Below are positions 32,597 through 49,133 of a stretch of DNA of 51,883 nucleotides, piece after piece. Every line of letters begins with the position of its first letter. Position 1 is the first letter of the stretch. Made by a program: the position numbers and the translations under genes. Source of the DNA: Clostridiaceae bacterium (lineage in GTDB: Bacteria > Bacillota > Clostridia > Lachnospirales > Lachnospiraceae); the NCBI GenBank assembly GCA_910575585.1, contig CAJTGF010000038.1, forward strand, positions 1 through 51,883, written 5' to 3'. The notes beneath the pieces were generated by a model. It saw nothing but the letters and a program-made list of their open reading frames with translations, was not told the DNA's origin and made no database searches.

Positions 32597-34180
32597 CAAA
32601 CTTCGCACATAGATTTTGCCTATGCACCCTGAAAATTCAATACCTGGCTGTTATTCAGTTGTCAAAAGTCTGCTGTTATGCTGCTTGAAGCTGCGCTTTC
32701 AGTAAACCAGGTAATGTATTCATAAATGTATCAACGAGTTCGTCGATTTTATCGTCGGACAGCTCTGTATTGTTGTTAAGTATGGTTCGGAACATTTGAA
32801 GCAGCATTCGAAATGCCTGTATCCATGTGATGTCAGACATTTCATCAGAAAAATAGAGAAAAAGTTCTCCCAGCGAACGGTTATCACTCCCTTCCCTGCT
32901 TTCCAAAGACAGCATCATATATCGTGTAAAAACAACCGCAGTGTGGGCTGTCATTGCGTCATATGATAAGGAGTTACATTCCCGGCTAAGATTCAGATAG
33001 CTTTTGCATACCTTGAAGAAAACTTCGATATCCCAGCGCTTGCCATAAATACGGATGATTTCATTTTCATCCAGCGTTGTATCGGTAGAGATAATGCATA
33101 AATATTCTTTCCTCTTATTCCGGTTATGCACATATACAACTTTAGCCGGAATGACTTTCCCATCCTTTACAACATCCACTAAAACAGAAAGCAGATACCG
33201 GGAACGGCCGCGTCTCTTTTTATTCCGATTATAGATTGTAATCAGGGATATGTCTTCCCCTTTGTATCGGAAGAACATTTTGGGAGTCTTTTTTACCATA
33301 CCAATGACATCATAACCGATGGTCTTTACTGCATGGAGGGTGCTTGGAGAAGAAAACCAGCTGTCAAAAAGGACATACTTTGCTGGAACTGCCGCTTTCT
33401 TAGCAGTTTTTAAAAGCTCAAGCATGGCTTGTGTCCCTTTTTGAATGGAAAGCAGCCTCCGTTTGTACCCGGCAGTCCGCTTATCAACCTTCACAGCTTC
33501 ATTGACCCTGTTCTTTTTGTTTTCAGACGAGAGAAGAATGCTGTTAACGGGAAGAAAAGAACTTCCATCTGACCATCCAAGTGTAAGCATACGAAATCCA
33601 AAACGGTATCTGTGGTTTGCGTGGTCGTAGGCCTTTGCAAGAAGCTCTACTTTTTTAGAACGATTGCGTTCGAACATAGAATCATCAATGATGAGTACAT
33701 TTGCGCGGTCTTCAGAGTCCAAGGGGACGATCGCGTCCCTGATAATCCGAGAAGCCAACAGAGTTGTAAAACGCATCCAGTTAATCTGGAGCATCTTCAT
33801 GAACCGATACACCGTATCCTTAGCAAATCCGGGAGTATTTCGTCCAGTGATCAGGCTCATATACATACTCCTGTTAGAAAAAATCAGCAGAAAAAGATAC
33901 TGAAAAACCTCAATAACGGGAATGCCTTTTTTCTTATAGGCATTAGATGCTTTCAATGCCGAGGAGATATGGAATCTTTTAAAAAATTTTTCGATAGATT
34001 TTGAAATCTGCTTATCATTCTGGTCTGCTTGTGTTATACTTTTATTCATAGCATGAGCCTCCGGTTTTAATTGTTTTTTGCCAACTCAATTATACCAAAC
34101 CAGACGGTTTCATGCTATCTTATTGCCAGTTTTTATTGTATTTTCAAGATGCATAGGCACTTATTCAAGTGCGAAGTTTG
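32597..34180 (-). mobile_element. IS4-family insertion sequence (1584 bp)
   Basis: Terminal inverted repeats start CAAACTTCGCAC at both ends and continue with TGCCTATGCA and TGAAAAT matches. The target AGTTATATACT (11 bp) is repeated at 32586-32596 and 34181-34191, in the 10-13 bp range of this family. One transposase gene fills it. A second copy begins at 51778; the overlapping 106 bases differ at one position, so the copies are recent. Confidence 0.95.
32676..34049 (-). CDS. IS4-family transposase
   Basis: 457 residues. A DDE-type enzyme: the first Asp is in VLIIDDSMFERNRSKKV, the second in YVLFDSWFSSPSTLHAV, and the YREK signature is Y-GK-R-WDI-E-VFFKVC-K, which fixes the family. A basic N-terminal region probably binds the ends. 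The start follows CCGGAGGCTC. The gene is complete, and the near-identical second copy suggests it is or was recently active. Confidence 0.95.
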   Translation of the reverse strand: MNKSITQADQNDKQISKSIEKFFKRFHISSALKASNAYKKKGIPVIEVFQYLFLLIFSNRSMYMSLITGRNTPGFAKDTVYRFMKMLQINWMRFTTLLASRIIRDAIVPLDSEDRANVLIIDDSMFERNRSKKVELLAKAYDHANHRYRFGFRMLTLGWSDGSSFLPVNSILLSSENKKNRVNEAVKVDKRTAGYKRRLLSIQKGTQAMLELLKTAKKAAVPAKYVLFDSWFSSPSTLHAVKTIGYDVIGMVKKTPKMFFRYKGEDISLITIYNRNKKRRGRSRYLLSVLVDVVKDGKVIPAKVVYVHNRNKRKEYLCIISTDTTLDENEIIRIYGKRWDIEVFFKVCKSYLNLSRECNSLSYDAMTAHTAVVFTRYMMLSLESREGSDNRSLGELFLYFSDEMSDITWIQAFRMLLQMFRTILNNNTELSDDKIDELVDTFMNTLPGLLKAQLQAA

Positions 34181-35168: not shown

Positions 35169-35624
35169 TTATGCTTTCCTGTCAAAAGACGGCTTATCCT
35201 CCAGATAATCCGGCAGTTCTTCCAGTTCCCCCCCTTTGCCGTTCTTCAAGGAGCGGTACTCATTAAAATAGATTCCGTAAAATTCCCTTTCCTTTTCCCG
35301 TTCAGCCGGAGTCCTCTCGCAAGCCCACCCGTATCCCGAACCGAGATATGTCAATACCTTTGTACCCTGGCAGTAAATGTCCGCGCCATATCCCCCGCTT
35401 GTCAGGATGGGGCAGGTCAGCGTTCCACCCCCTGCCAGCGCAAACTTCTTTTCGGCAAGGCTCTCTGCCCTGCCGTCCACCGCCTCCAGAAAGTCAAGCA
35501 ACGTCAGCTCCCCGCTCCCGTGGCATTTCGGATTGCCGCCCTGCCGCTCAATGACATACTGTGTTTCGTATTTACAGAATTTACTGCACTTAAAGCCGAA
35601 ATTCCCATGAGTACACCTTACAAT
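35169..35624 (-). CDS. Cys-containing hypothetical protein; start codon unclear
   Basis: The open frame from about 35624 reads IVRCTHGNFGFKCSKFCKYE, then ETQYVIERQGGNPKCHG, and further down SGGYGADIYCQGTKVLTYLG, ending PSFDRKA, up to 151 residues. Cys spacing near the N-terminus suggests a small metal site. No ATG, GTG or TTG occurs at the natural start: an ATG lies one base out of frame at 35628, and losing one A would give ATG ATT GTA. An internal TTG at 35501 would leave 110 residues. I suspect a one-base insertion at the start. The family is not recognised. Confidence 0.5.
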   Translation of the reverse strand: MVRCTHGNFGFKCSKFCKYETQYVIERQGGNPKCHGSGELTLLDFLEAVDGRAESLAEKKFALAGGGTLTCPILTSGGYGADIYCQGTKVLTYLGSGYGWACERTPAEREKEREFYGIYFNEYRSLKNGKGGELEELPDYLEDKPSFDRKA

Positions 35625-35772
35625 TCATTTTCCTATCTGTGGTTCCTCTTCCAATCAGAGCCGCTCCCACTCCCCTGATTCCCCAATCCGCCGGAACGCC
35701 GAGGATAAATAAGGTGTAAAGATTATACCTGTATATCCAACCTACGCATAATAAATCCCTCCTACATCAATA

Positions 35773-36345
35773 TCATATTTTCACATCCAGCCCATTACTA
35801 CCTTTAGAATACAAGGCATTTACACTATCCTGAAAAATAGTATCACCTGCAAAAACCTCATCCAGTATTTCATGTGAAATAGGTTGCCCTGCTGTCCAAG
35901 TAGGATCTTTTTCCTTTACAGCCTGTGTTGCCCTTCCGGCAATTTCCAAATGAAGCCGGCTCAAAGTCCACGGTGCAGCACGACGGGTACTTAAATCTAA
36001 CGACTTCACATAGGAATGGATCTTGTCATAATATGCATCTGTCTCAGCAGTATTATCACCGGACATTCCGCCATACTTGTAAAACGCCTTTTTAACATCA
36101 TCATAAACGTGCTGTTTCATTTCATCTGATACATTGACAATCCGCTTCCAATCTGTTTTTCCTGTGATTCCCATGCCTTCAACTCCATAAGAATTTTTGA
36201 AATGTCCGGAACGCAGATCATCAATGGTATTACCACAATAATTTCCTTTCGATGCCCCGGCGAAAGGCATATTCGTATTTGCTTTGCCACCGTTCATCCT
36301 TGATAAAAGCTGCCAGATTCCCTGGCTGTTATTTCCTATACGCAT
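35773..36345 (-). CDS. unknown protein of the LytTR/GHKL locus (190 aa)
   Basis: Starts MRIGNNSQGIWQLLSRMNGG behind AGGAGGAATTTTATC. No signal peptide or membrane segment is present. The middle is helical and polar (WKRIVNVSDEMKQHVYDDVK, AYYDKIHSYVKSLDLSTRRA), and the protein ends with KGSNGLDVKI. It follows a broken gene and the sensor fusion on the same strand with short gaps, so one operon is likely. The short N-terminus with Asn/Ser then Gly resembles the openings of its two neighbours (MAISGV, MDFGVTG), which suggests that these proteins belong to one set. Function and family are unknown to me. Confidence 0.7.
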   Translation of the reverse strand: MRIGNNSQGIWQLLSRMNGGKANTNMPFAGASKGNYCGNTIDDLRSGHFKNSYGVEGMGITGKTDWKRIVNVSDEMKQHVYDDVKKAFYKYGGMSGDNTAETDAYYDKIHSYVKSLDLSTRRAAPWTLSRLHLEIAGRATQAVKEKDPTWTAGQPISHEILDEVFAGDTIFQDSVNALYSKGSNGLDVKI

Positions 36346-36361
36346 GATAAAATTCCTCCTT

Positions 36362-36884
36362 CTATATGGTCAAATCCAACTGTACGCCTTTGCCAGCTTC
36401 CTGCACTTTCACAGGCTGGCTTGTTCCTGCCTTTATCTGTTCCGTCAGTTTTTCCACGGATTCCGCCTTTGCCAGCTTCTTCTCCTTTAAGGCTTCCTCC
36501 TCTTTCTTCTTCGCGCGTTTTCCGCTATCTGCTTCTGTACCTTTTCCTTATAGACCGTGCCGGGGTTCTCCATCGTGTCCTTGCTCCTGCCGACCATCCA
36601 GTAAGACACTTTCCCATTCTTGTCAATAAGGGCGCCTGCACTGAGTATCTCGTCATTGTTCTCCCTTGCGAACTTCTCAATCCGCTCCGAATTGCCGGAC
36701 ATTTCTGCAAAGACTTTCTCATACTTTGCCGCCGCTGCCGGGTCTTTCGCCATCTTCTCTACGATGCCGAGGGGAAACCGCTATGTTGTTATACCCCCTG
36801 CTCCCAAGCATATAGGCATCTTCCTGCATTTGCCCGGTCTGCTGCATAAGTGTTCGTGTAATCCGTTACTCCTGAAATTGCCAT
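36362..36884 (-). pseudogene. broken gene of the LytTR/GHKL locus, DUF6033-like, with several frameshifts
   Basis: The ATG at 36884 follows AAAGGAGGATG and gives MAISGVTDYTNTYAA. The sequence then makes sense in a second frame (QMQEDAYMLGSRGYNNIAVS), next in a third (EKMAKDPAAAAKYEKVFAEM, ALIDKNGKVSYWMVGRSKDT), and finally in another (KEEEALKEKKLAKAESVEKL, ending GKGVQLDLTI). At least three single-base lesions separate these blocks. The blocks resemble DUF6033-type Lachnospiraceae proteins; that name is tentative. The coiled, Lys/Glu-rich tail is typical. It lies between the fusion gene and the 190-residue gene. Confidence 0.65.
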
Positions 36885-36977
36885 AATAATCATCCTCCTT
36901 TAAAAAATCTTACCTGCGGCTCCTCTGTCATTCGGAGCCGCCCATGCCCCTTGCGGTAAGTCCGGGCATGATCTTCC

Positions 36978-39170
36978 TTACCTCAAAATGCCCGCCGCCT
37001 CATATGCGGCAATCGAAACCGCCTTTTTGGTCATGCTGTCCTTATAATATCTCTCGTCTGCTTCCTGCTCCATCAGCCTGCGTTTCAGGGCAGCTTCCTC
37101 CGCCAGCCTTTCATATTCTGCGTGCTTTGCTTCCCTTGCTCTGCGGGCTTCAACAAATTCTGATGATGAAACAGTAAATTTCAGTTCTCCCACCACACAA
37201 GCGTGGTTGATTTCTCCATTTTCATCAAATGTCATCAGAAAACCTTCGTTCTCACCGGGAGTAGAATTAGTTAATAAAAAACTATCCACCCGCTCCATTA
37301 CTTTTTGTGCAAGCTCCGTGTTATTTTTCATTTTTTCTTCCAGTTCCGGCGGTATAACCACAGCAATCTTACCAAGCATTGCATTCATCTTGGCGCGGAC
37401 TGCCGGACTCTGCATATCGGGTTCAGCTCCCGACGGTTTCCAGTTCAGAACAGAATCATCCGCATTATTGCTGAAATACTTATCCCACGGATAATCATTC
37501 CTCCCCCATAGATCTCCGTCAATCTTGGATGTATCCATGACATTGTAATATGCTCCCGGATACTTTGATTTCAGCATTTCCTTAAAACTGACATTCTCTG
37601 TTTTCCCCGCCGCTTTCGTAGCTGCAAGCTCCGCAAAGCTCACGCGACCACTCTTGCCTGCCGCATTCTTCCGATACTGCTCCGCCAGATGGTACCCTCC
37701 CAATTTACCTGTCACTCCGAAATCCATCTTCCTCTCTCCTTCATTTTTCATCATCACAGACAGGATGAACAACCTGCCGTTTACCTTAAAATCTACTGCC
37801 CCCTGGTATTTCTCCGCCGTGCTTTTGATATTGGCAAGCCCTATCCCGTGGGATTTCCTGTCCGCCTTATCCGTTACCGGGAACTCCTCCTTCGCCTTAA
37901 GCACCAGCCGCCCGTCAAAGCTGTTCTCCACTTTCAGGATGAGCAGGTTCCCTTTCTGCAGGGAGCTTATACGGATAAAGGCATCCGCCCCCGGCTCTTT
38001 CGCTTTCAGCTTCCGGCAGGCTTCGATTGCATTATCCACCGCATTCCCCAGGATGACGCCTATGTCATAGCTGTGTATATGAATCCCCTGCGGGAGCAGC
38101 AGCTTATCCGCATCCATCCTTAAGTCGGGCATATCCCGCACCGCCTCATGGTATTTCATGTTGAGCAGGGTATCCACCACCGTGTTCCCCGTCCTGAACC
38201 GCACTTCCAGCTTTTCAAGCCCCCTGTTCAGTTCCGACAGGTACTCCTGCAGTTCCCCACCCCCTTCCCCTGCGGAAAGGCGCTGGATGACGGCAAGGGT
38301 GTTCTTCATGTCATGCTTCATGCCCCGTATGCCGGAATAGATGCGCTCCATCTCCTCCATGTGTTCCTGCAGGCTGCTTATCTGATTTTCGAGGACGATC
38401 CTGCCGCTCTTTTCCCTGTTCCAATAGATCATGTCCTGGAACAGCTTCACCCCGTACAAAATGGAGAGCAGCGACAGGAGCAGGATTGCGGGTATCACAA
38501 TGACGAGGATCGGATACCTGTCATACAGCATTTTGGGGATGCCGTCCTCCAGCGTGATCATGATGATACGCAGGAGCATACAGATCATCATGCCCACCGC
38601 TGACGGGACAAGGATGAACAGCAGCTCCGTCCTGCTGATAACATAATCCTTTTCCCGGAAATCCCCCACGATCTTCCTCAGTGAAAAATACAGCAGCAGG
38701 GCGATCCCGGCATACTGGATAAGCTGCGTCCCGGCCACACCGGCCTTTACCGCCATGCCGAAGGATTTTTCCGATGCGAGCATCCCTTTCCCCGCGCACC
38801 AGTTAATGATGTCAAGCACCCACCTGTCCACCACATTCAGCAGTATGGCCACCGTATATTTGCTGATATCCAACAACACCTGGAACGAGACTACGAGGAA
38901 AACCGTGATGAGGCGCAACGCCTTATAAAAACACAAGGAAAGGGCTGACAAGATACAGAGCGACAATGCCAGCGTCCCCGCCGCCACCCTGTAATCCTCA
39001 TATTCCGGCGGGGAACACCATACCACGGCTGTCCGCAGGGCCGCATATAAGCCCGCCACATACATCCCGTTCCATCTGCCCCTCATCCTTGTTTCCAGAA
39101 AGTTCCCAAAAAAATACTGCAGGCAGTACCCCTGGAACACCGTCAGGGCCGCATATAGCACATACGTCAT
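36978..39170 (-). CDS. GHKL sensor kinase fused in frame to an unknown protein
   Basis: 730 residues. Residues 1-240 hold about six membrane segments, as in AgrC/ComD-like peptide sensors. The helix region has the phospho-acceptor His286 in RGMKHDMKN, and the ATPase domain has LGNAVDNAIEACRKL and GIGLANIKS. At about residue 481 the kinase should end (LFILSVMMKNEG), but no stop is present and the frame continues into MDFGVTGKLGGYHLAEQYRK, 249 further residues of helical, Lys/Glu-rich, cytoplasmic protein. The second part has its own ATG at 37727 and ribosome site, so it may be made both alone and as a fusion. The ATG at 39170 follows the regulator stop by one base; a GTG at 39188 is less likely. 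Whether the fusion is functional is unknown. Confidence 0.8.
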   Translation of the reverse strand: MTYVLYAALTVFQGYCLQYFFGNFLETRMRGRWNGMYVAGLYAALRTAVVWCSPPEYEDYRVAAGTLALSLCILSALSLCFYKALRLITVFLVVSFQVLLDISKYTVAILLNVVDRWVLDIINWCAGKGMLASEKSFGMAVKAGVAGTQLIQYAGIALLLYFSLRKIVGDFREKDYVISRTELLFILVPSAVGMMICMLLRIIMITLEDGIPKMLYDRYPILVIVIPAILLLSLLSILYGVKLFQDMIYWNREKSGRIVLENQISSLQEHMEEMERIYSGIRGMKHDMKNTLAVIQRLSAGEGGGELQEYLSELNRGLEKLEVRFRTGNTVVDTLLNMKYHEAVRDMPDLRMDADKLLLPQGIHIHSYDIGVILGNAVDNAIEACRKLKAKEPGADAFIRISSLQKGNLLILKVENSFDGRLVLKAKEEFPVTDKADRKSHGIGLANIKSTAEKYQGAVDFKVNGRLFILSVMMKNEGERKMDFGVTGKLGGYHLAEQYRKNAAGKSGRVSFAELAATKAAGKTENVSFKEMLKSKYPGAYYNVMDTSKIDGDLWGRNDYPWDKYFSNNADDSVLNWKPSGAEPDMQSPAVRAKMNAMLGKIAVVIPPELEEKMKNNTELAQKVMERVDSFLLTNSTPGENEGFLMTFDENGEINHACVVGELKFTVSSSEFVEARRAREAKHAEYERLAEEAALKRRLMEQEADERYYKDSMTKKAVSIAAYEAAGILR
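37725..37745 (-). promoter_or_regulatory. internal ribosome site and start inside the fusion gene
   Basis: GAAGGAGAGAGGAAG followed by ATG at 37727 lies inside the open frame. It is the kind of site expected for a separate gene directly behind a kinase gene, and so supports the view that the fusion arose by loss of a stop codon. Confidence 0.7.
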
Positions 39171-39171
39171 C

Positions 39172-39882
39172 TTAAACACTGGACACACCCCCGTTCTGCA
39201 GGTGCCACATATAGGCTTTCACAAACTCCCCATACTTCTTTTTCGTCAGATACACCCTGTCGCCGTTCGTAAGGGTAATGCTCTCGCCGTCATATTCCGT
39301 GATGCAGTCCATGTTCACGATATACGCCCGGTGGCAGCGGTAAAAATTCTCCCCCAGCTGCCCCTCCAGTTCATCCATCGCCGCATAGATCTCTATGACC
39401 TGCGCCGCCCCTTTTGTGTGTATCTCCACCTTCTTCGCCCTGCTCTCGATATACAGGATTTCGGACTGGTCAAGGGTAAGGTTCCGTGACTTGATGAACA
39501 GCACACGGCGCTCCTTCTTCTTTGCGGCCTCCCGCACCGCCCTTGCCAGTACCCCCGCAAATTTATTCTCGTCTATAGGCTTTAGCAGGTACTGGAACGC
39601 ATAGAGGTCAAATGCGTCAAACACATAGTCCCTGATGCCCGTAACGAACACCAGCACGGTATCCCCCTGCTTTTCCCGCAGGCTTCTTGCCGCCTCTATG
39701 CCGTTCATGCCCTCCATCTGTATGTCAAGGAAAACGATCTCAAACCGCTTCCCCGATGCGAGCAGTTCCTCGCCCGTGGCATAGGCTTTTATGCGGCTTT
39801 CCGGCTGCTGCTCCTCCACCAGCCCGCATATAAGCTCCCTGATCGCTTTCTCGTCATCCACAACTGCAATATCCAAAATCAA
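39172..39882 (-). CDS. LytTR-family response regulator
   Basis: 236 residues. The receiver has acidic residues VVDDEK, phospho-acceptor Asp53 in FLDIQMEGMNG, Thr/Ser in FVTG and Lys in LLKPID. The C-terminal LytTR DNA-binding domain has the conserved ILYIESRAKKVEIHT and FYRCHRAYIVNMDCI. Such regulators act with GHKL sensors in agr-like peptide signalling. The stop lies one base before the sensor start. Direct repeats upstream (39947 and 39969) are a candidate binding site, so autoregulation is likely. No peptide precursor or AgrB-like protease gene is visible nearby. Confidence 0.94.
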   Translation of the reverse strand: MILDIAVVDDEKAIRELICGLVEEQQPESRIKAYATGEELLASGKRFEIVFLDIQMEGMNGIEAARSLREKQGDTVLVFVTGIRDYVFDAFDLYAFQYLLKPIDENKFAGVLARAVREAAKKKERRVLFIKSRNLTLDQSEILYIESRAKKVEIHTKGAAQVIEIYAAMDELEGQLGENFYRCHRAYIVNMDCITEYDGESITLTNGDRVYLTKKKYGEFVKAYMWHLQNGGVSSV

Positions 39883-39946
39883 TCACCTCAATCTATATAG
39901 GCATTCACTTCTTATATCGGCAGAAATTTCCCGTTTTTTGGGCGGA

Positions 39947-39978
39947 GGGAACGAAACGACCACTTTTCGGGAACGAAA
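39947..39978 (-). promoter_or_regulatory. direct repeats, candidate LytTR operator
   Basis: GGGAACGAAA occurs at 39947-39956 and 39969-39978, a period of 22 bases, which puts both on the same face of the helix. LytTR regulators typically bind two direct 9-10 bp repeats spaced this way upstream of promoters. The site lies about 65-95 bases before the regulator gene's start. The core sequence is not an exact match to the published consensus, so binding is an inference from spacing and position. Confidence 0.5.
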
Positions 39979-40013: not shown

Positions 40014-40334
40014 CTAAAGTTTTTCGCCATTCGTTCGATATCGGGGCGGCACAAACGCAAACCGCCATGTAAGCATATTAACTCTGTTTTCCCCCCGCTT
40101 TCCAATAGGCAGACCGCCCTCTCCGCCCGCTTCCAGGATCAACTCCGCCGTCTGTACGGCCCGGAGCATATCGCTGGTATAGACCGCATTAAAATCAATC
40201 CCCTTTAATTTCTGCCCTATTTCAACCGCCGTCTGCTTTCCTGCTTCGGTGAGCGGTGAATCAGCCCATCCCTGCGCCCGGTCTAAGCTGTTCAAAAGCG
40301 TCTGCCCATGCCTGACTATGTAAAAACGAACCAT
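40014..40334 (-). pseudogene. histidine phosphatase (phosphoglycerate-mutase-like), C-terminally truncated
   Basis: 106 residues from the ATG at 40334, which follows GGAGGTGACAAGC. The catalytic RHG (FYIVRHGQTLLNSLDRAQGW) and LTEAGKQTAVEIGQKL plus TSDMLRAVQTAEL are intact. Family members run on to about 190-230 residues with a second His; here the frame ends in unrelated residues (RGENRVNMLTWRFAF) after LILEAGGEG. The second half of the active site is therefore missing. The break falls close to the LytTR operator region, so a rearrangement brought the two together. Confidence 0.8.
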
Positions 40335-40398
40335 GCTTGTCACCTCCGCTGACAGTATAAGGAATCGTTGTCAAAATAGCAAGCAGTTACTTTTGGGG

Positions 40399-40425
40399 TA
40401 CTACCTATCAAGTTGGGGAGTAGTA
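40399..40425. promoter_or_regulatory. inverted repeat upstream of the phosphatase fragment
   Basis: TACTAC and GTAGTA lie 15 bases apart in a region that also holds a minus-strand promoter-like TTGCTA-N17-TATACT. Such spaced dyads are common HxlR/MarR operator forms. It would regulate the truncated phosphatase gene. Confidence 0.35.
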
Positions 40426-40545
40426 TTCCATCTCCCTGAACGCGCCAGCCATTCCTCCTACAAGGCTCCACTGGCGCTGTATATAGGATTTCAGATTTTC
40501 CGTGCTTTGCCTGTATGCCTCCCGGATTGTTTCCAGAGTATAAAA

Positions 40546-40914
40546 TTATGCTTTCTGCCACAGAAACATACTGTCCTGAAATTCAGTCTTCAGTTTCCCG
40601 GTATCTTTCAGCCACGAAAGGTAAGAACGCACCGTACTTCCCACCAATACATACTGCTCAAAATTCATGGAAAGACCATAGCTTTTGAAAACTCCCTGCA
40701 AAATACGTTCAAAGCACATTGGCTCCCCACAGATGGACAGAATCCTTTCTGCCACCCTATGCACTTTATCTCTGTTGTAACGGACAAGCTGCTTCACATC
40801 AGTAGAGGCATCCGCATGAGCAGGGACAAACATGGCCGCCTCCATCTGCTCCACCTTATCCAGTGTTTCCAGATATGCGCCCACGTCATAGATGAAGGAA
40901 ACCGCATGGTTCCG
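40546..40914 (-). pseudogene. C-terminal part of an MBL-fold metallo-hydrolase
   Basis: The frame begins without a start near 40914 (HAVSFIYDVGAYLETLDKVE) and runs FVPAHADASTDVKQLVRYNR, FEQYVLVGSTVRSYLSWLKD to the end FQDSMFLWQKA. The AHADA block with a metal-binding His and the following winged-helix-like tail are typical of MBL-fold proteins in Clostridia. The N-terminal half with the HxHxDH motif is missing. The break coincides with the start of IS66-type sequence, so insertion of that element removed it. Confidence 0.75.
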
Positions 40915-41751
40915 TATGGCAGCGGATTGCAGGCTTTTGCTTTATCACTCACAAATACCGTCAATGCCGCTATGAACAAAGCATCCATGTTTCTTGCCGG
41001 AATCACCGGCGGTGAATTAATGCCCTGTGAGGGATACATTGCGAAACTCCAGGCCCGTGCCGCAAATGGGCTCCGCCAGTTTCGCCAGGATCTGAAGCTT
41101 GTCCTGATCACAAGAAAGATCGTTTACTGGGACGATACGGTCATCTTCATTCTTGCGCAAAGAGCACGTTTCCGATTTTATGGAGACGAGTCCATTGCCT
41201 ACTATACAGCGCATGCATACAAAGACATGGAAAGCCTTGATGACGACAATGTACTGAATCTCCTGACATCGGATAGCAAAACCATGCACGACCATAACAC
41301 CGTAAACTACAATGACAAGTACAGCTTTGAGAATATCGAGTGTAATCAGCATCTTCAGCGTGACTGCCAGAAGAATACAGATGATACCTGCCATCAATGG
41401 TCTGATGATCTGAAAAAGCATATCAGTGCAGCCATCAAGGATCGCAATGATGCCATAGCCCGGGGTGAGGGTTCTTTCAGCGAAGCCTACATAAAGCGCA
41501 GAAACTATTTCCTATGGGTTGAAGATTTCAGTCTGCCAACTACCAATAATCTCAGTGAACGCGGGCTTCGAGGTGTAAAATCCCACATGAAAATATCAGG
41601 ACAGTTTGAATCAGAGACTGCGGCCGATAATCATGCGCTCAACCGAACATACATCGAAACCTGCCGTCGTAATGGCATCAATGAAATCGATGCGTTGCAA
41701 CGATTATGCGAGGGGAATCCTTATACGGTTGCCGAAATCTTCTCGGCCTAA
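40905..41751 (+). pseudogene. IS66-type transposase, 5'-truncated and degraded
   Basis: The C-terminal IS66 blocks are clear: NNLSERGLRGVKSHMKISGQ, then ADNHALNRTYIETCRRNGIN and NPYTVAEIF at the end. Upstream, from about 40920, PYGSGLQAFALSLTNTVNAA and CEGYIAKLQARAANGL also fit the family. A GTG/ATG and the whole N-terminal half are absent. The plus-strand frame appears open further left, but that part is antisense to the metallo-hydrolase and is not transposase. No IS66 accessory genes or right end are visible. Confidence 0.8.
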
Positions 41752-43564: not shown

Positions 43565-44366
43565 TCTCCACCCTCCTTTTCAGCTTCTGGTAAAACAGAA
43601 TACCAAATCCCACAGTCAGTCCCAGCACCACCAACGCAGAACACAAAATGGTGAGCTGATCTGTACCAGCGGAACTTCTACCCTGCAGCCATAAATCCAA
43701 CCGAAGTCTGACAGGAATTTTCAAAACCAAATAAGCCCGACCTATCAAAAAGGATAGAATCAAAGGAGACGCCGCCGTCACATAGATATTCGGGAAATAT
43801 GACGATACCAGCAAAGCTGCCGTTGCCCATAACCCTCCGGTCAAAAACAAAAGGAAGATAACCGCTGTAAAATAGCAGGCAGCGTTACCTTGCAGCAAAA
43901 ATTCATAATAAGGAAAGGCTTCTGTCTCCAGCAATCTGGCTCGATTGAACAGCTGAACAAAAGAATTTGCCAGGAGAATAAAAGTAATCCCGCCTGCCGA
44001 TACCGAAAGAGCTCCCGATAGGAATGTCGTAAGCACCTTGGACATACAGTATTTCTTCTTTCCTGCTTTCATAAGCAGCACCCTCAGCATATTCGTATTG
44101 TATTCCTCGCAAAAACTTACCGCATAGGGAAGCGCCGCCAGCATCGGAACCACATAGATACCATAAAAGCCTCCAAATATAAAAGAATTACACCAATAAT
44201 AGTATACATCCATAGTCTCAGGAGATGTCCACATAAATGGTATCTGGTTCCAGGTATCCAGACAGATGCACAACACCACGCCGACCGGTACAAGGAGAAA
44301 TCTCACCGTCAGACTCCTCTTAAATTCAGCACCAAACAGACGGGGCAATGCCCTTTTATTCTCCAT
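43557..44366 (-). CDS. ABC transporter permease (second ABC operon)
   Basis: 269 residues from the ATG at 44366; a GTG at 44381 would add five residues but has no better ribosome site. Six hydrophobic segments are visible, for instance FLLVPVGVVLCICLDTW and IYVVPMLAALPYAVSF, with a cytoplasmic loop CEEYNTNMLRVLLMKAGKKK that resembles the coupling region of ABC-2 permeases. It ends LKRRVENE and overlaps the next permease by eight bases. Its start overlaps the end of the lipoprotein gene. Confidence 0.85.
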   Translation of the reverse strand: MENKRALPRLFGAEFKRSLTVRFLLVPVGVVLCICLDTWNQIPFMWTSPETMDVYYYWCNSFIFGGFYGIYVVPMLAALPYAVSFCEEYNTNMLRVLLMKAGKKKYCMSKVLTTFLSGALSVSAGGITFILLANSFVQLFNRARLLETEAFPYYEFLLQGNAACYFTAVIFLLFLTGGLWATAALLVSSYFPNIYVTAASPLILSFLIGRAYLVLKIPVRLRLDLWLQGRSSAGTDQLTILCSALVVLGLTVGFGILFYQKLKRRVENE

Positions 44367-45519
44367 AGGATAGATTACCACCCGTTATCGCATTGATCCG
44401 CTCCGCACTGCTGTTTCCCGAAGGCGAATCTATCTGCACACACCAATAAGGCACCAGCTTATACTGTTCCTTCTCTTCCCAGTCCGGTACAACGACATAT
44501 TCCAGCCATATCCGGGAGATTGTAACCTGCGAGCTCAATATGGTATTCACATAAATTTCCTTTACCGCTTCCAGTGCTGCCTCCGCTGAGATAATCGTCT
44601 GCGTCTCTGCTTCCGGGCTGGCGTCAAAAATTCCACCCCTGCTGGCTATATAGCGAATCCCATCCTTATCAAGCAACATAGTGATTCGGGTTTCAGCCGT
44701 CCAAAAGGTTTCCACTGCCATGGATATGCCCGGCTCATTGATGCCGCTGTAGATTGGCAGACCATCCTTTCTAAGTTCATACTCCATATAATATATCTCA
44801 TCTGCGTCTGACCAGTCATCGACTGTAGTTTCTTTCCTTGTCTGTGCATCTTCCTGATATTTCTGAGTCTGCCTATACTTCTCCTCCAACTCTGTTAGTA
44901 TTTCCTTATTCAGAGAATAAGCAACAAGAACCTCCGAATACTGTCCGGTCAGCTCCTTAATTTTTTCTTTCCCCATCTGAACGGCTTTTTCTGCGTCCAG
45001 AAAGGATAAATCCTGTATTTCTTCCTTCTGGAAAGAACAACTGCCAGCATTATAATATGCGGATTCCACCAAATATACGATGTGGTCGTCCCTTTCCTCA
45101 TCCTTCGCATATGTAAAATTACCATAGGGATTCGTACTAAAGTATCCACCCTCTTTTGTTTTTGCAGAATATGCACCAACCCATTCTGGGTGAGCCGTTA
45201 CAACGGCTTCCGCCCCTCCGAAAAAAACATCTAAATCTTCTCTCGGAAACGCTTGCTTTGTCAGCGCATACACGCTATATACCTGGTCTTTTGGCAAAAC
45301 TACCTCCGCATCAATTACCAACTTATCGGACAACTTCTCACTGATATGATTTGTTCCAGATTCCACCCCTCCTACACTCCCCTGCATCGCCTCTGTGCTG
45401 CTTCCTGCCGGTGTACTCTCCGAAGGTCCCGCTGCTGTACCAGAGCAGCCAGTCAGCAGAATACCGGTAGACATAAGCACGGACAACGCAAACATCTTTT
45501 TTGAAACGCTCTTTTTCAT
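44356..45519 (-). CDS. lipoprotein of the second ABC operon
   Basis: 387 residues from the ATG at 45519 (GAGGAGATATT upstream). The signal MKKSVSKKMFALSVLMSTGI leads to lipobox LTGC. A Ser/Thr-rich linker follows, then a large domain of alternating strands and helices (YSVYALTKQAFPREDLDVFF, SDKLVIDAEVVLPK), and a C-terminal part with PYWCVQIDSPSGN. It is anchored outside, encoded first in the operon of two permeases and an ATPase. A 121-bp piece recurs as debris at 7661-7781. No named family is certain. Confidence 0.85.
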   Translation of the reverse strand: MKKSVSKKMFALSVLMSTGILLTGCSGTAAGPSESTPAGSSTEAMQGSVGGVESGTNHISEKLSDKLVIDAEVVLPKDQVYSVYALTKQAFPREDLDVFFGGAEAVVTAHPEWVGAYSAKTKEGGYFSTNPYGNFTYAKDEERDDHIVYLVESAYYNAGSCSFQKEEIQDLSFLDAEKAVQMGKEKIKELTGQYSEVLVAYSLNKEILTELEEKYRQTQKYQEDAQTRKETTVDDWSDADEIYYMEYELRKDGLPIYSGINEPGISMAVETFWTAETRITMLLDKDGIRYIASRGGIFDASPEAETQTIISAEAALEAVKEIYVNTILSSQVTISRIWLEYVVVPDWEEKEQYKLVPYWCVQIDSPSGNSSAERINAITGGNLSYGE

Positions 45520-45642
45520 AATATCTCCTCTTTCCATCAAATTGGTAGTGTCAAAATCAATACCCCAAATCGCCTCATCCTCTGTACAATAAAAGATTCA
45601 GCTTCTCGATACCTTTACCCCATACCTCTTAATGACCAGTTA

Positions 45643-47101: not shown

Positions 47102-48985
47102 CTATAAGTCAGCATAAATCCGTATGGTAACTGGCTCTTGGAAATGTACTCGCTTTACCTTTCGCCTTACTTTATTAGCATACTCCTTCGCCTGGTCATA
47201 GTCAATAGTAAACTCAGCAATAAGTGAAGAATTTGAGTTGTCCAGAAATCTCTTAGCCGGATGAACAAAAGGATTAAACTCGTCATCAGGTATAACTGGC
47301 CTATTGACTTCAATATCTGGATTAACCCTTATGTTATACTCAAATACGCCATTTGCACAAGCTTTAATACTGTTAACATAAGTTTCTATCAAAATATCTG
47401 GAACCTTAACACTCTTCATTCCTACCTTGGGAAACTCCAATGCTTTGTCAACAAAACTCTTTACCGAAGCAATGGTCTTCTGTTTCTGTTCATCATTAAA
47501 CTGCATAGCCTCTAAATTCTTCTTTAGGACAGCCTTCTTTGCCAACTCAGTATCATTATTACCTTTCCTGGCTTTGTATACCTCCTTGTCAATAATACCT
47601 TCTTCCAAAAGATTAAGCAGGTTTTCATTTCTAGCGTTTAATTGCTCAATCTCCTTATCCAATTTCATAATATCCCCGACAGAATATCCGGAGTCTGTAA
47701 TACCTACAAAAGACCTCTCAATAATACTCATCAACTTTACCTTTACAAAAGGAATATTACACTCCAGATAATTAAATACTTTCCAGGTAAACAAATCCAA
47801 CTTCCAATCTCGTATACCAACAACAGAACAATTATCGTTTAAAATATGACTTCTCTCCAATCTAATGCTCTGACTCCCATCTTCAATAACTTGATAGCAA
47901 TAATAAGTAGCTGTATTATTTTTTGTTTCTACATCCTTTCTGAGTCTTCTGCCACAGCCACAACGAGTCTTACGACAATAGATATCCTTATTTTCAACCT
48001 TTCCATTTATCCCATTCTTATTGCCTGGTTTAAAATCATGATTTACCCTGCTGTCAATTGATCTCTGAACCGCATACCACAAATCTGGCTCAATAATTTT
48101 AGGATATTCCATTTTTTTACTAATACGCTGTTCTTTAGGAACTTTGACCCGCTCATGAGTAAGTGGATCTTCTGTCACACTTTGAAAATGTTCCAACTCG
48201 CCCATATAAGTACGCCTTCGCAGGATACGCTCAATGGTAGACTCATACCATTTTTCACTCCCACACGAAGTCTTATAACCTTTATCTTCAAGATAATGTC
48301 GTATCTTTTTCATTCCTATGCCCTTTAATGCCATTTCATATATCTCACGTACAATTTGAGCCTGCTCCTCATTAATTACGTATGTTGTATCCGCTGACTT
48401 ATCGCCTTTTACAAGGTTATATCCCAAAATATTACCATTTCCCATTAGAACGCCATTTTCTCTAGCAATAGCTTGGCCTGAGAAAACGCGTTCTGAAATT
48501 TTTCTGGATTCCTGTTCTGCATATTGTGCCATTATCGTTAGCTTAAAATAATCCTCTTCATTACGACTCCATATACCATCATTCACGAAATATACCTCAA
48601 CATCATATTCTAACAGCTTATCCACAAGGTTTAATGTTAGTTTTGCATTTCTCATAAATCTGCATACTTCACGAACAATAATAAGATCATATACCCCACT
48701 TTTAGCTTTATTAATCATCTCAGAAAACTGTGGTCTATTTTCAAATAAAGTACCCGATATCCCCTCGTCCACAAATAAATCTTTATCAGTATTAAATATC
48801 CAATCCTTATGGTCTTGTGCAAGTTCTATCGCCCACTGTTTCTGATTACTAAGAGCATTTATCTGCATCTCATGTTGGGTACTAACACGGACATAAATTG
48901 CAACTCGCTTCTTTCCAATTTTTACCTTCCGTTTAGAAGATACATTTCTCGCATCATGTTTATTCAGATACTGTGGATTTATCAT
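47102..48985 (-). CDS. large serine recombinase
   Basis: 627 residues from the ATG at 48985 (GAAGGGAGATTCC upstream); an earlier start adds 16 residues without a better site. The resolvase domain has the nucleophile Ser35 in YVRVSTQHEM and the helix with MAQYAEQESRKISERV. A recombinase domain follows (GYNLVKGDKSADTTYVINEE, RRRTYMGELEHFQ), then a zinc-ribbon (CRKTRCGCGRRLRK), and a coiled-coil insertion near 450-490. The protein is AT-rich and Lys/Asn-rich. Such enzymes integrate phages and mobilise ICE-like elements; no attachment sites can be assigned within the window. It overlaps a small upstream gene. Confidence 0.93.
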   Translation of the reverse strand: MINPQYLNKHDARNVSSKRKVKIGKKRVAIYVRVSTQHEMQINALSNQKQWAIELAQDHKDWIFNTDKDLFVDEGISGTLFENRPQFSEMINKAKSGVYDLIIVREVCRFMRNAKLTLNLVDKLLEYDVEVYFVNDGIWSRNEEDYFKLTIMAQYAEQESRKISERVFSGQAIARENGVLMGNGNILGYNLVKGDKSADTTYVINEEQAQIVREIYEMALKGIGMKKIRHYLEDKGYKTSCGSEKWYESTIERILRRRTYMGELEHFQSVTEDPLTHERVKVPKEQRISKKMEYPKIIEPDLWYAVQRSIDSRVNHDFKPGNKNGINGKVENKDIYCRKTRCGCGRRLRKDVETKNNTATYYCYQVIEDGSQSIRLERSHILNDNCSVVGIRDWKLDLFTWKVFNYLECNIPFVKVKLMSIIERSFVGITDSGYSVGDIMKLDKEIEQLNARNENLLNLLEEGIIDKEVYKARKGNNDTELAKKAVLKKNLEAMQFNDEQKQKTIASVKSFVDKALEFPKVGMKSVKVPDILIETYVNSIKACANGVFEYNIRVNPDIEVNRPVIPDDEFNPFVHPAKRFLDNSNSSLIAEFTIDYDQAKEYANKVRRKVKRVHFQEPVTIRIYADL

Positions 48986-49133
48986 ATGGAATCTCCCTTC
49001 TTGCATTTTGATATGTAGCAAAATTAATAACATTATTTTTCAATAAGCTTTCTAACAAACTTGATAATAATAACTCTGGTCTTAAAACTTGCTGTTCTTG
49101 CACATCTTGAATGAAACCATCTTCTGCTCTCAT
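48960..49133 (-). CDS. small protein upstream of the recombinase (57 aa), SHOCT-like
   Basis: The ATG at 49133 has GGAGG eight bases upstream. It reads MRAEDGFIQDVQEQQVLRPE followed by LLLSSLLESLLKNNVINFAT and ends DKSTVSE. The pattern of a short helix, then L..L...GxIxxxEY-like residues (LLKNNVINFATYQNARREI) resembles SHOCT modules. The end overlaps the recombinase start by 26 bases, implying coupled expression. It may be a partner such as a directionality factor; this is position-based inference. Confidence 0.6.
   Translation of the reverse strand: MRAEDGFIQDVQEQQVLRPELLLSSLLESLLKNNVINFATYQNARREIPYDKSTVSE

What the first reader, a model, noticed from the sequence alone, without database searches (positions are those of the whole stretch)
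35773..39978. LytTR/GHKL signalling locus with a sensor fused to the first of three unknown proteins
A LytTR regulator, a GHKL sensor and at least three genes of unrecognised families lie in one minus-strand run. The unknown proteins share short openings (MDFGVTG, MAISGV, MRIGNN), lack signals and membrane segments, and are helical and charged. The locus lacks any AgrB or peptide precursor, so its ligand is unclear. The sensor runs in frame into the first unknown protein and the second is broken, so the system is either decaying or recently altered. It is the best candidate here for an undescribed module.
Basis: partly seen in the sequence, partly recalled or inferred. Interest (0 to 1): 0.75.

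Follow-up and report, generated by a model that had tools for sequence, protein, structure and literature searches.

The report
Decayed flagella-linked sensor and effector module
The stretch is a broken duplicate of a widespread, undescribed gene module of motile gut bacteria, in which a surface sensor and a flagellum-type gene switch appear to control a set of small proteins that may be sent out through the flagellum.

Summary
The three unknowns are DUF6033-like (protein 1, below Pfam's cut-off), DUF6033 (protein 2) and DUF3879 (protein 3). The same genome holds a copy of the run without these breaks, so the window copy is a decaying duplicate; the sensor-protein 1 fusion was seen only here.

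In relatives, DUF6033/DUF3879 genes lie behind LytTR/GHKL genes (54 of 77 loci) or, in other loci, behind BlaI/BlaR1 (9 of 38). Three lines tie the module to flagella. DUF6033 occurs almost only in genomes with the flagellar export gate FlhA (80 of 82 against 42 of 168). The regulator genes carry sigma-28-type -10 boxes (28 of 50 clusters; shuffles average 0.4). Arrays include FlxA-like and FliD_C proteins. 26 of 31 LytTR promoters also carry a direct repeat at an offset of 21 or 22 bp, the known LytTR autoactivation layout.

Best reading: a dual-input (sigma-28 plus surface sensor) operon making small proteins with type-III-like N-termini, probably exported through the flagellum. Regulon membership is well supported by sequence; export is inferred and untested; the proteins' action is unknown.

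The parts
39947..39978 (-). LytTR-type operator: perfect 10-bp direct repeat separated by 12 bp
   Evidence: in this genome the site occurs exactly only here and before the paralogous module on contig C56.
39914..39921 (-). sigma-28-type -10 box (GCCGATAT), ending 37 nt before the regulator start; an A-rich -35-like stretch lies 14 nt upstream
   Evidence: the same CCGATA(A/T) box precedes flgM and a flagellin gene in this genome.
39172..39876 (-). LytTR response regulator (receiver + LytTR domains), TTG start
   Evidence: start set by comparison with the C56 paralogue.
37734..39179 (-). GHKL membrane histidine kinase; its frame continues into the next gene in this copy
   Evidence: residues 1-482 of the fused ORF match the home-built kinase profile.
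36978..37727 (-). Array protein 1 (DUF6033-like, 249 aa), in frame with the sensor
   Evidence: AlphaFold model of the first 242 residues with a low-confidence N-terminus.
36362..36884 (-). Array protein 2, DUF6033, broken (about 100 nt shorter than the 624-nt paralogue; longest open piece 36487-36753)
35773..36345 (-). Array protein 3, divergent DUF3879, 190 aa, open
   Evidence: AlphaFold model: confident helical domain about 65-183, low confidence 1-38.
35723..35749 (-). Remnant of a second DUF3879-type gene (start and RLDIQV tail only)
   Evidence: relative L115 has a second DUF3879 gene at this place ending LDIQV.
35169..35608 (-). Fourth array member, broken (opens MGISALSAVNS, ends KPSFDRKA; by eye a relative of the 223-aa L067:10251-10922)
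   Evidence: no Pfam family for its open piece or for the relative.

Best explanation
The locus is a decaying duplicate of a self-contained module of the flagellar regulon in motile Lachnospiraceae. Proposed working: (1) the operon is transcribed from a sigma-28-type promoter, so only when flagellar late genes are on; (2) a GHKL membrane kinase senses an unknown outside cue and its LytTR partner binds the direct repeat just upstream of the promoter and activates its own operon, or, in the alternative version, BlaR1 relieves BlaI repression; (3) the operon makes an array of small soluble proteins (DUF6033, DUF3879 and others) with disordered, acid-poor N-termini that are exported through the flagellar type III apparatus and act outside the cell. 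Steps 1 and 2 rest on cis-elements and gene order. Step 3 is inferred from co-occurrence with FlhA, FlxA/FliD_C array members and N-terminal composition. What the proteins do outside is not known. In the window copy the regulator, promoter and one DUF3879 gene look intact; the sensor-protein 1 junction and the other array genes are damaged.
For: DUF6033 and FlhA: 80 of 82 DUF6033+ genomes have FlhA against 42 of 168 others, p 3e-31; DUF3879 20 of 21. FliA and FlhA genes adjacent in this genome. CCGATA(A/T) in the -90..-18 region of 28 of 50 regulator clusters, shuffles mean 0.37, max 4 in 1000 rounds; strong DUF6033 matches: 21 of 28 against 5 of 33 neighbouring genes, p 2.6e-6. 10-mer direct repeats (8 or more of 10) in 26 of 31 LytTR promoters (15 at offset 22, 11 at offset 21), 16 of 20 when similar promoters are dropped, 0 of 4 BlaI promoters; shuffles mean 0.67, max 4, and 0.44, max 5; these promoters were first picked for holding CGATA. 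The layout matches published LytTR autoactivation (PMC6193735, passages). Operator exact only at the two module promoters of the genome. Array members FlxA-like (2.9e-15) and FliD_C (3e-8, 1.6e-8). N-terminal 25 residues: 51-54% N/S/T/G/Q/Y against 32% background and 48% in FlgM; acidic residues 5% against 15% in the rest of the same proteins. Cys 0.0-0.8% against 1.5%. Paralogue without these breaks on C56. One BlaR1 carries a DUF3879 domain beyond its last membrane-like segment, where BlaR1 sensors are outside the cell (topology recalled).
Against: No secretion data; type III signals cannot be proven from sequence. A profile of FlgM N-termini scores DUF3879 above background (17 of 49 beyond the 99th percentile; DUF6033 8 of 102; the GIGYP family 1 of 29, not different from background), but position-shuffled profiles reach the same means, so it is inconclusive. 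42 of 122 FlhA+ genomes lack DUF6033. G216 has DUF6033 without an FlhA match, G249 has DUF6033 with only fragment matches to FlhA, and G247 has DUF3879 without FlhA. 22 of 50 regulator clusters lack the full -10 box, and 5 of 31 LytTR promoters lack the repeat. 12 of 38 and 23 of 77 loci show no regulator (some are cut by contig ends). The FlhA association is not tree-corrected beyond near one genome per genus. Many DUF6033/DUF3879 proteins keep one or more Cys (85 of 102 and 33 of 49). No fold match.
Confidence: 0.6

Rival explanations
1. The proteins belong to the flagellar regulon but stay inside the cell or on the motor, as motility or chemotaxis modulators, chaperones or assembly factors; the sensor tunes them.
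For: Promoter, FlhA co-occurrence and regulator linkage say nothing direct about export; FlxA itself is a sigma-28-dependent protein of unknown role (recalled).
Against: Acid-poor, polar, low-confidence (probably disordered) N-termini shared across families, low Cys, FliD_C-like members, and one DUF3879 domain in the outside position of a BlaR1.
Confidence: 0.25
2. An Agr-like quorum-sensing locus whose peptide ligand was overlooked; the unknown proteins are its regulated output, and the flagellar link is secondary.
For: GHKL plus LytTR is the Agr/Com type of pair; the regulator has a sub-threshold match to AgrA (42.8 bits, cut-off 400).
Against: No AgrB among the proteins scanned and no room in the C56 paralogue; the same protein families occur behind BlaI/BlaR1 instead; operator exact only at module promoters.
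Confidence: 0.07
3. A mobile or defence cassette: the proteins are toxin, immunity or anti-phage components carried by IS elements.
For: IS66 and DDE transposase genes flank the window copy; copies vary and decay.
Against: No PADLOC match for seven and no PHROG match for five module proteins at E <= 0.01; conserved promoter logic and FlhA co-occurrence.
Confidence: 0.05
4. The sensor-protein fusion is a functional innovation, a kinase with an attached effector.
For: One open 736-aa frame in the window.
Against: The only kinase fusion in the loci scanned; elsewhere the two genes often overlap (13 times by 23 nt) in different frames; neighbouring array genes are broken; near relative L115 is broken here in another way.
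Confidence: 0.03

Closest known systems
Campylobacter jejuni Fed and Cia proteins (non-flagellar proteins exported through the flagellum)
   Same: Proposed here: non-structural proteins tied to flagellar expression and sent out by the flagellar type III apparatus through an N-terminal signal (PMC2764114 abstract and passages; PMC8306008 passages; the sigma-28 control of the Fed proteins is recalled).
   Different: Here the genes form arrays of DUF6033/DUF3879 and other families behind a dedicated sensor-regulator pair; export is untested. I did not compare the sequences with Fed or Cia proteins.
LytTR regulatory systems and LytTR two-component operons with positive autoregulation
   Same: LytTR regulator, direct repeats about 11-12 bp apart just upstream of the -35 region, self-activation (PMC6193735 passages).
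   Different: The regulator has a receiver domain and a GHKL kinase rather than a membrane inhibitor; the promoter is of sigma-28 type and the output is the linked array.
BlaI/BlaR1 (M56) sensor-repressor pairs
   Same: The alternative regulator of the same array families; Pfam Peptidase_M56 5.4e-40 for L061. The other BlaI/BlaR1 labels rest on home-built profiles.
   Different: Linked to DUF6033/DUF3879 and a sigma-28-type promoter; one carries a DUF3879 domain at its C-terminus.
FlxA and FliD families
   Same: Single array members match them.
   Different: The other array proteins scanned match neither, and the modules lie apart from the two flagellar stretches read in this genome.

Membership tests
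DUF6033 (PF19498) | Score above Pfam's cut-off of 25 bits | tested here: met
   Open piece of protein 2: 53.2 bits. Protein 1 only 15.2 bits, so not filed as a member by that test.
DUF3879 (PF12995) | Score above Pfam's cut-off of 27 bits | tested here: met
   Protein 3: 46.3 bits.
LytTR/GHKL two-component pair | Receiver + LytTR regulator and GHKL ATPase kinase | tested here: met
   LDIQMEGMNG and KHDMKN stretches visible (their role as phospho-sites is recalled).
LytTR autoregulated operon | Direct repeats 11-13 bp apart just upstream of the -35 region | tested here: met
   Perfect in the window; 26 of 31 promoters; published layout.
LytTR regulatory system (LRS) | LytTR regulator paired with a membrane inhibitor protein | tested here: not met
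   The regulator has a receiver domain and the partner is a GHKL kinase.
Agr quorum-sensing locus | AgrB protease and peptide precursor | tested here: not met
   No AgrB among the Pfam-scanned proteins, no room in the C56 paralogue.
Flagellar (sigma-28) regulon | sigma-28-type promoter | tested here: met
   By sequence only; Lachnospiraceae consensus from PMC3720852 (passages).
Flagellar (sigma-28) regulon | Transcription lost without FliA | not testable with these tools
   Needs an experiment.
Flagellar type III substrates | Disordered, polar, acid-poor N-terminus resembling FlgM | tested here: inconclusive
   Composition fits; FlgM profile test not position-specific.
Flagellar type III substrates | FlhA-dependent secretion | not testable with these tools
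   Only co-occurrence with FlhA could be tested.
ESX/T7SS substrates | Genome encodes EssB/YukC | tested here: not met
   None in G000; over the cut-off in 12 of 250 genomes, 6 of which are among the 82 with DUF6033.

The most novel reading that the evidence does not exclude
Motile gut Lachnospiraceae carry a so far undescribed class of sensor-gated, flagellum-exported effector arrays: swappable surface sensors (GHKL/LytTR or BlaR1/BlaI) license, on a sigma-28 promoter, the release of a diversified set of proteins with common N- and C-terminal sorting signals, so that the flagellum serves as a regulated secretion device in commensals.
Probability: 0.4. Interest if true: 0.88.

Novelty: new variant of a known kind. 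Interest (0 to 1): 0.72.

Why it matters
Two unnamed Pfam families, found here in 82 and 21 of 250 sampled genomes (249 genera) of one bacterial family, get a testable place: the flagellar regulon, in many loci under a dedicated surface sensor. Relatives sit in named mouse-gut and other genomes (Schaedlerella arabinosiphila, Eubacterium plexicaudatum ASF492, Lachnospiraceae bacterium A4; their mouse-gut origin is recalled). If the proteins are exported, the flagellum of common gut commensals would be a sensor-controlled secretion route and not only a motor and a source of flagellin.

Tried and rejected
Rejected: the fusion as a functional design; Agr-type quorum sensing (no AgrB among scanned proteins, no room); defence or phage origin; T7SS export (EssB absent from G000). 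Led nowhere: fold comparison of protein 3 and protein 1 with the PDB (no match at E <= 1e-3); PDB sequence search (the RecA lines have low E-values for the whole chain but no single stretch passes; I take them for linker repeats, a guess); FlgM-profile test (inconclusive; that script ended with an import error after printing its results). A first promoter scan (15 of 59 against 8 of 265) used crude operon calls, and a second (score >= 10 in 28 of 73 against 10 of 88) a loose score whose controls included array members; searches are the cleaner tests. Literature: no paper holds DUF3879, DUF6033 or DUF4885 and none holds 'FlxA-like' with 'flagell'; five hold LytTR, flagell and Lachnospiraceae together, listing seen only; other searches. 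Seen of papers: passages of PMC3720852, PMC8306008, PMC2764114 (with abstract), PMC6193735; outline and abstract of PMC12109265, not used. Only openly licensed PMC papers were searched.

Full report
What is there. Pfam gives a LytTR response regulator, a GHKL kinase, DUF6033 for the open piece of protein 2 (53.2 bits, cut-off 25) and DUF3879 for protein 3 (46.3 bits, cut-off 27); protein 1 is DUF6033-like below the cut-off. NCBIfam has no match for the array proteins. Two further damaged members follow downstream, at 35723-35749 and 35169-35608.

A paralogue in the same genome explains the damage. G000 contig C56 carries the run without these breaks: regulator, kinase, a 259-aa relative of protein 1, a 207-aa DUF6033, and two DUF3879 proteins. 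There the kinase gene overlaps the next gene by 23 nt in another frame. In the window the two frames coincide, which makes the fusion. In the loci scanned (96 ORFs with a kinase label) no other kinase is fused to these proteins; one BlaR1 has a DUF3879 domain. In 35 of 63 loci the kinase gene overlaps the next array gene. The close relative L115 is also damaged at this place, in another way. The window copy is flanked by transposase genes. So the window is a decaying duplicate whose promoter still looks intact.

The module recurs. PF19498 was found in 82 of 250 genomes of the family and PF12995 in 21 of 250 (the match list was capped). I took 40 neighbourhoods from those tables by hand: 27 contigs with DUF3879 matches (all those outside G000 but one, G227) and 13 with tandem or weak DUF6033 matches. 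In 38 of the 40 an array protein was called; of these 38, 19 have LytTR/GHKL genes within 4.5 kb upstream on the same strand, 9 have BlaI/BlaR1, 26 have either and 12 neither. The 28 genomes checked hold 1 to 30 LytTR genes each, so this is far above chance by rough reckoning; I did not compute that figure. A scan of named genomes with the protein 3 subgroup gave 79 loci (80 kept of 113). DUF3879 was called in 77 of them; 54 of these 77 have the LytTR/GHKL genes in the same chain, 23 have none, none has BlaI/BlaR1, and in 14 of the 77 the first labelled gene begins within 300 nt of the contig end. A common order is regulator, kinase, DUF6033 (one or two), DUF3879, then a family opening M-S-I-N-G-I-G. 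These counts use my own ORF caller and home-built profiles, and the 79 loci were selected by likeness to protein 3.

The flagellar link. FlhA was found in 123 of 250 genomes. Counting G249, which has only fragment matches, as negative, 80 of 82 DUF6033-positive genomes have FlhA against 42 of 168 others (p 3e-31); for DUF3879 it is 20 of 21. The exceptions are G216, G249 and G247. G000 has FlhA next to FliA within a flagellar cluster (read by eye). EssB, tested as a rival export route, is over the cut-off in 12 of 250, 6 of them DUF6033-positive, and absent from G000. Array members include an FlxA-like protein and two FliD_C proteins.

The promoter. Passages of PMC3720852 give the sigma-28 consensus used for Butyrivibrio, Roseburia and Eubacterium: TAAA and (M)CGATA(a/t). 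Among 78 module regulators in 50 clusters, 28 clusters carry CCGATA(A/T) in the -90 to -18 region and 35 carry CGATA; 1000 shuffles give means of 0.37 (max 4) and 3.5 (max 10). In the 30 best loci, where by eye most DUF6033 genes stand without a regulator in the 1.5 kb held on each side, 21 of the 28 DUF6033 genes my filter caught have the two-part site against 5 of 33 other genes (p 2.6e-6; shuffles mean 1.8, max 6). The filter let at least one DUF6033 gene (L034) and two array-type genes fall among the controls, which works against the result. In G000 the same box precedes flgM and a flagellin gene.

The operator. Anchoring LytTR promoters on CGATA showed a direct repeat just upstream. At 8 or more of 10 identities, 26 of 31 promoters have it (15 at offset 22, 11 at offset 21, none at both), 16 of 20 after dropping similar promoters, and 0 of 4 BlaI promoters; shuffles average 0.67 (max 4) and 0.44 (max 5). 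L023, L067, L072, L075 and L161 lack it by this measure. In the window it is a perfect 10-bp repeat with 12 bp between. Published LytTR autoactivation sites have the same layout (PMC6193735, passages). In the 6.1-Mb genome the exact site occurs only at the window and C56 promoters; eight further sites have 3 mismatches, and the reversed-pattern control gives as many sites overall, 10 and 10. The third LytTR module of this genome, on C44, is not found by this pattern. The element of the BlaI promoter on contig C1 is likewise unique at up to 3 mismatches. This argues for regulators dedicated to their own operons.

The proteins. No membrane-like segment showed in the hydropathy values printed (up to 40 proteins per family). 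Their first 25 residues are rich in N/S/T/G/Q/Y (51-54%, background 32%, FlgM 48%) and poor in acidic residues (5% against 15% in the rest). Cys is 0.69% in DUF6033 and 0.52% in DUF3879 against 1.47% in the background, but only 17 of 102 and 16 of 49 lack Cys altogether. A C-terminal motif of the form (F/L)D(I/V/L)x(A/I) is present in 38 of 102 DUF6033, 34 of 49 DUF3879 and 3 of 4 proteins of the group around the FlxA-like one, against 3 of 431 background proteins, but in none of the other three families (0 of 29, 8 and 6). Another tail (..ASLM) is shared between DUF6033 and DUF3879 members. Models of protein 3 and protein 1 have mean pLDDT 73, with low-confidence N-termini and a confident core, and no PDB match at E <= 1e-3. 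A FlgM N-terminal profile raises DUF3879 scores but not in a position-specific way, so the likeness of MRIGNN to FlgM's MRI opening stays a hint.

Interpretation. Shown by sequence: a conserved module, its two regulator versions, its sigma-28-type and LytTR cis-elements, its near restriction to genomes with flagellar export genes. Inferred: activation logic (both inputs needed), export through the flagellum, action outside the cell. One BlaR1 protein has a DUF3879 domain beyond its last predicted membrane segment, which hints that the domain works outside; this is a single case. I put regulon membership at about 0.85 and export at about 0.55.

Limits. No expression or secretion data. Co-occurrence is over 249 genera but not tree-corrected. 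Family assignments of array members other than those scanned with Pfam rest on home-built profiles. The literature held is only the openly licensed part.

Noticed in passing
L061:7063-9288: A BlaR1 (M56) protein of 741 aa with a DUF3879 domain (138.7 bits) after its last membrane-like segment, in a module with FliD_C and DUF3879 genes: sensor and output share a domain.
   Followed up: partly
L085:2905-3858, L093:9179-10336, L158, L174, L157, L156, L168, L076: Further C-terminal tails..ASLM is shared by DUF6033 and DUF3879 proteins..INMLM occurs in DUF3879 proteins, as if C-terminal tags were exchanged between families.
   Followed up: no
window 36888-36980 (-): Strong RNA hairpins between array genes 1 and 2 (-30 kcal/mol, z -3.4), possibly setting relative expression.
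   Followed up: partly
window 40014-40884 and L020:544-2854; L072:1831-3282: By eye, XRE, metallo-beta-lactamase-fold and histidine-phosphatase genes lie upstream of the C56 module, and relatives of the first two also in G239; in the window only truncated pieces are left.
   Followed up: no
window 32676-34049 and 40333-41751: DDE and IS66 transposase genes bracket the module; a serine recombinase lies at 47102-49033.
   Followed up: no
L087:8378-9187, L092:10690-11367, L025, L079-L082: BlaI-linked promoters share AT-rich, partly palindromic elements (by eye) overlapping a TTAA..CCGATA promoter, perhaps BlaI operators.
   Followed up: partly
L099 (NZ_RHJS01000001.1): In Schaedlerella arabinosiphila one module copy lies on a separate 164-kb contig, perhaps a plasmid.
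   Followed up: no
window 44356-45540: Protein with a weak match to DUF6034 and YycI (below cut-offs).
   Followed up: no
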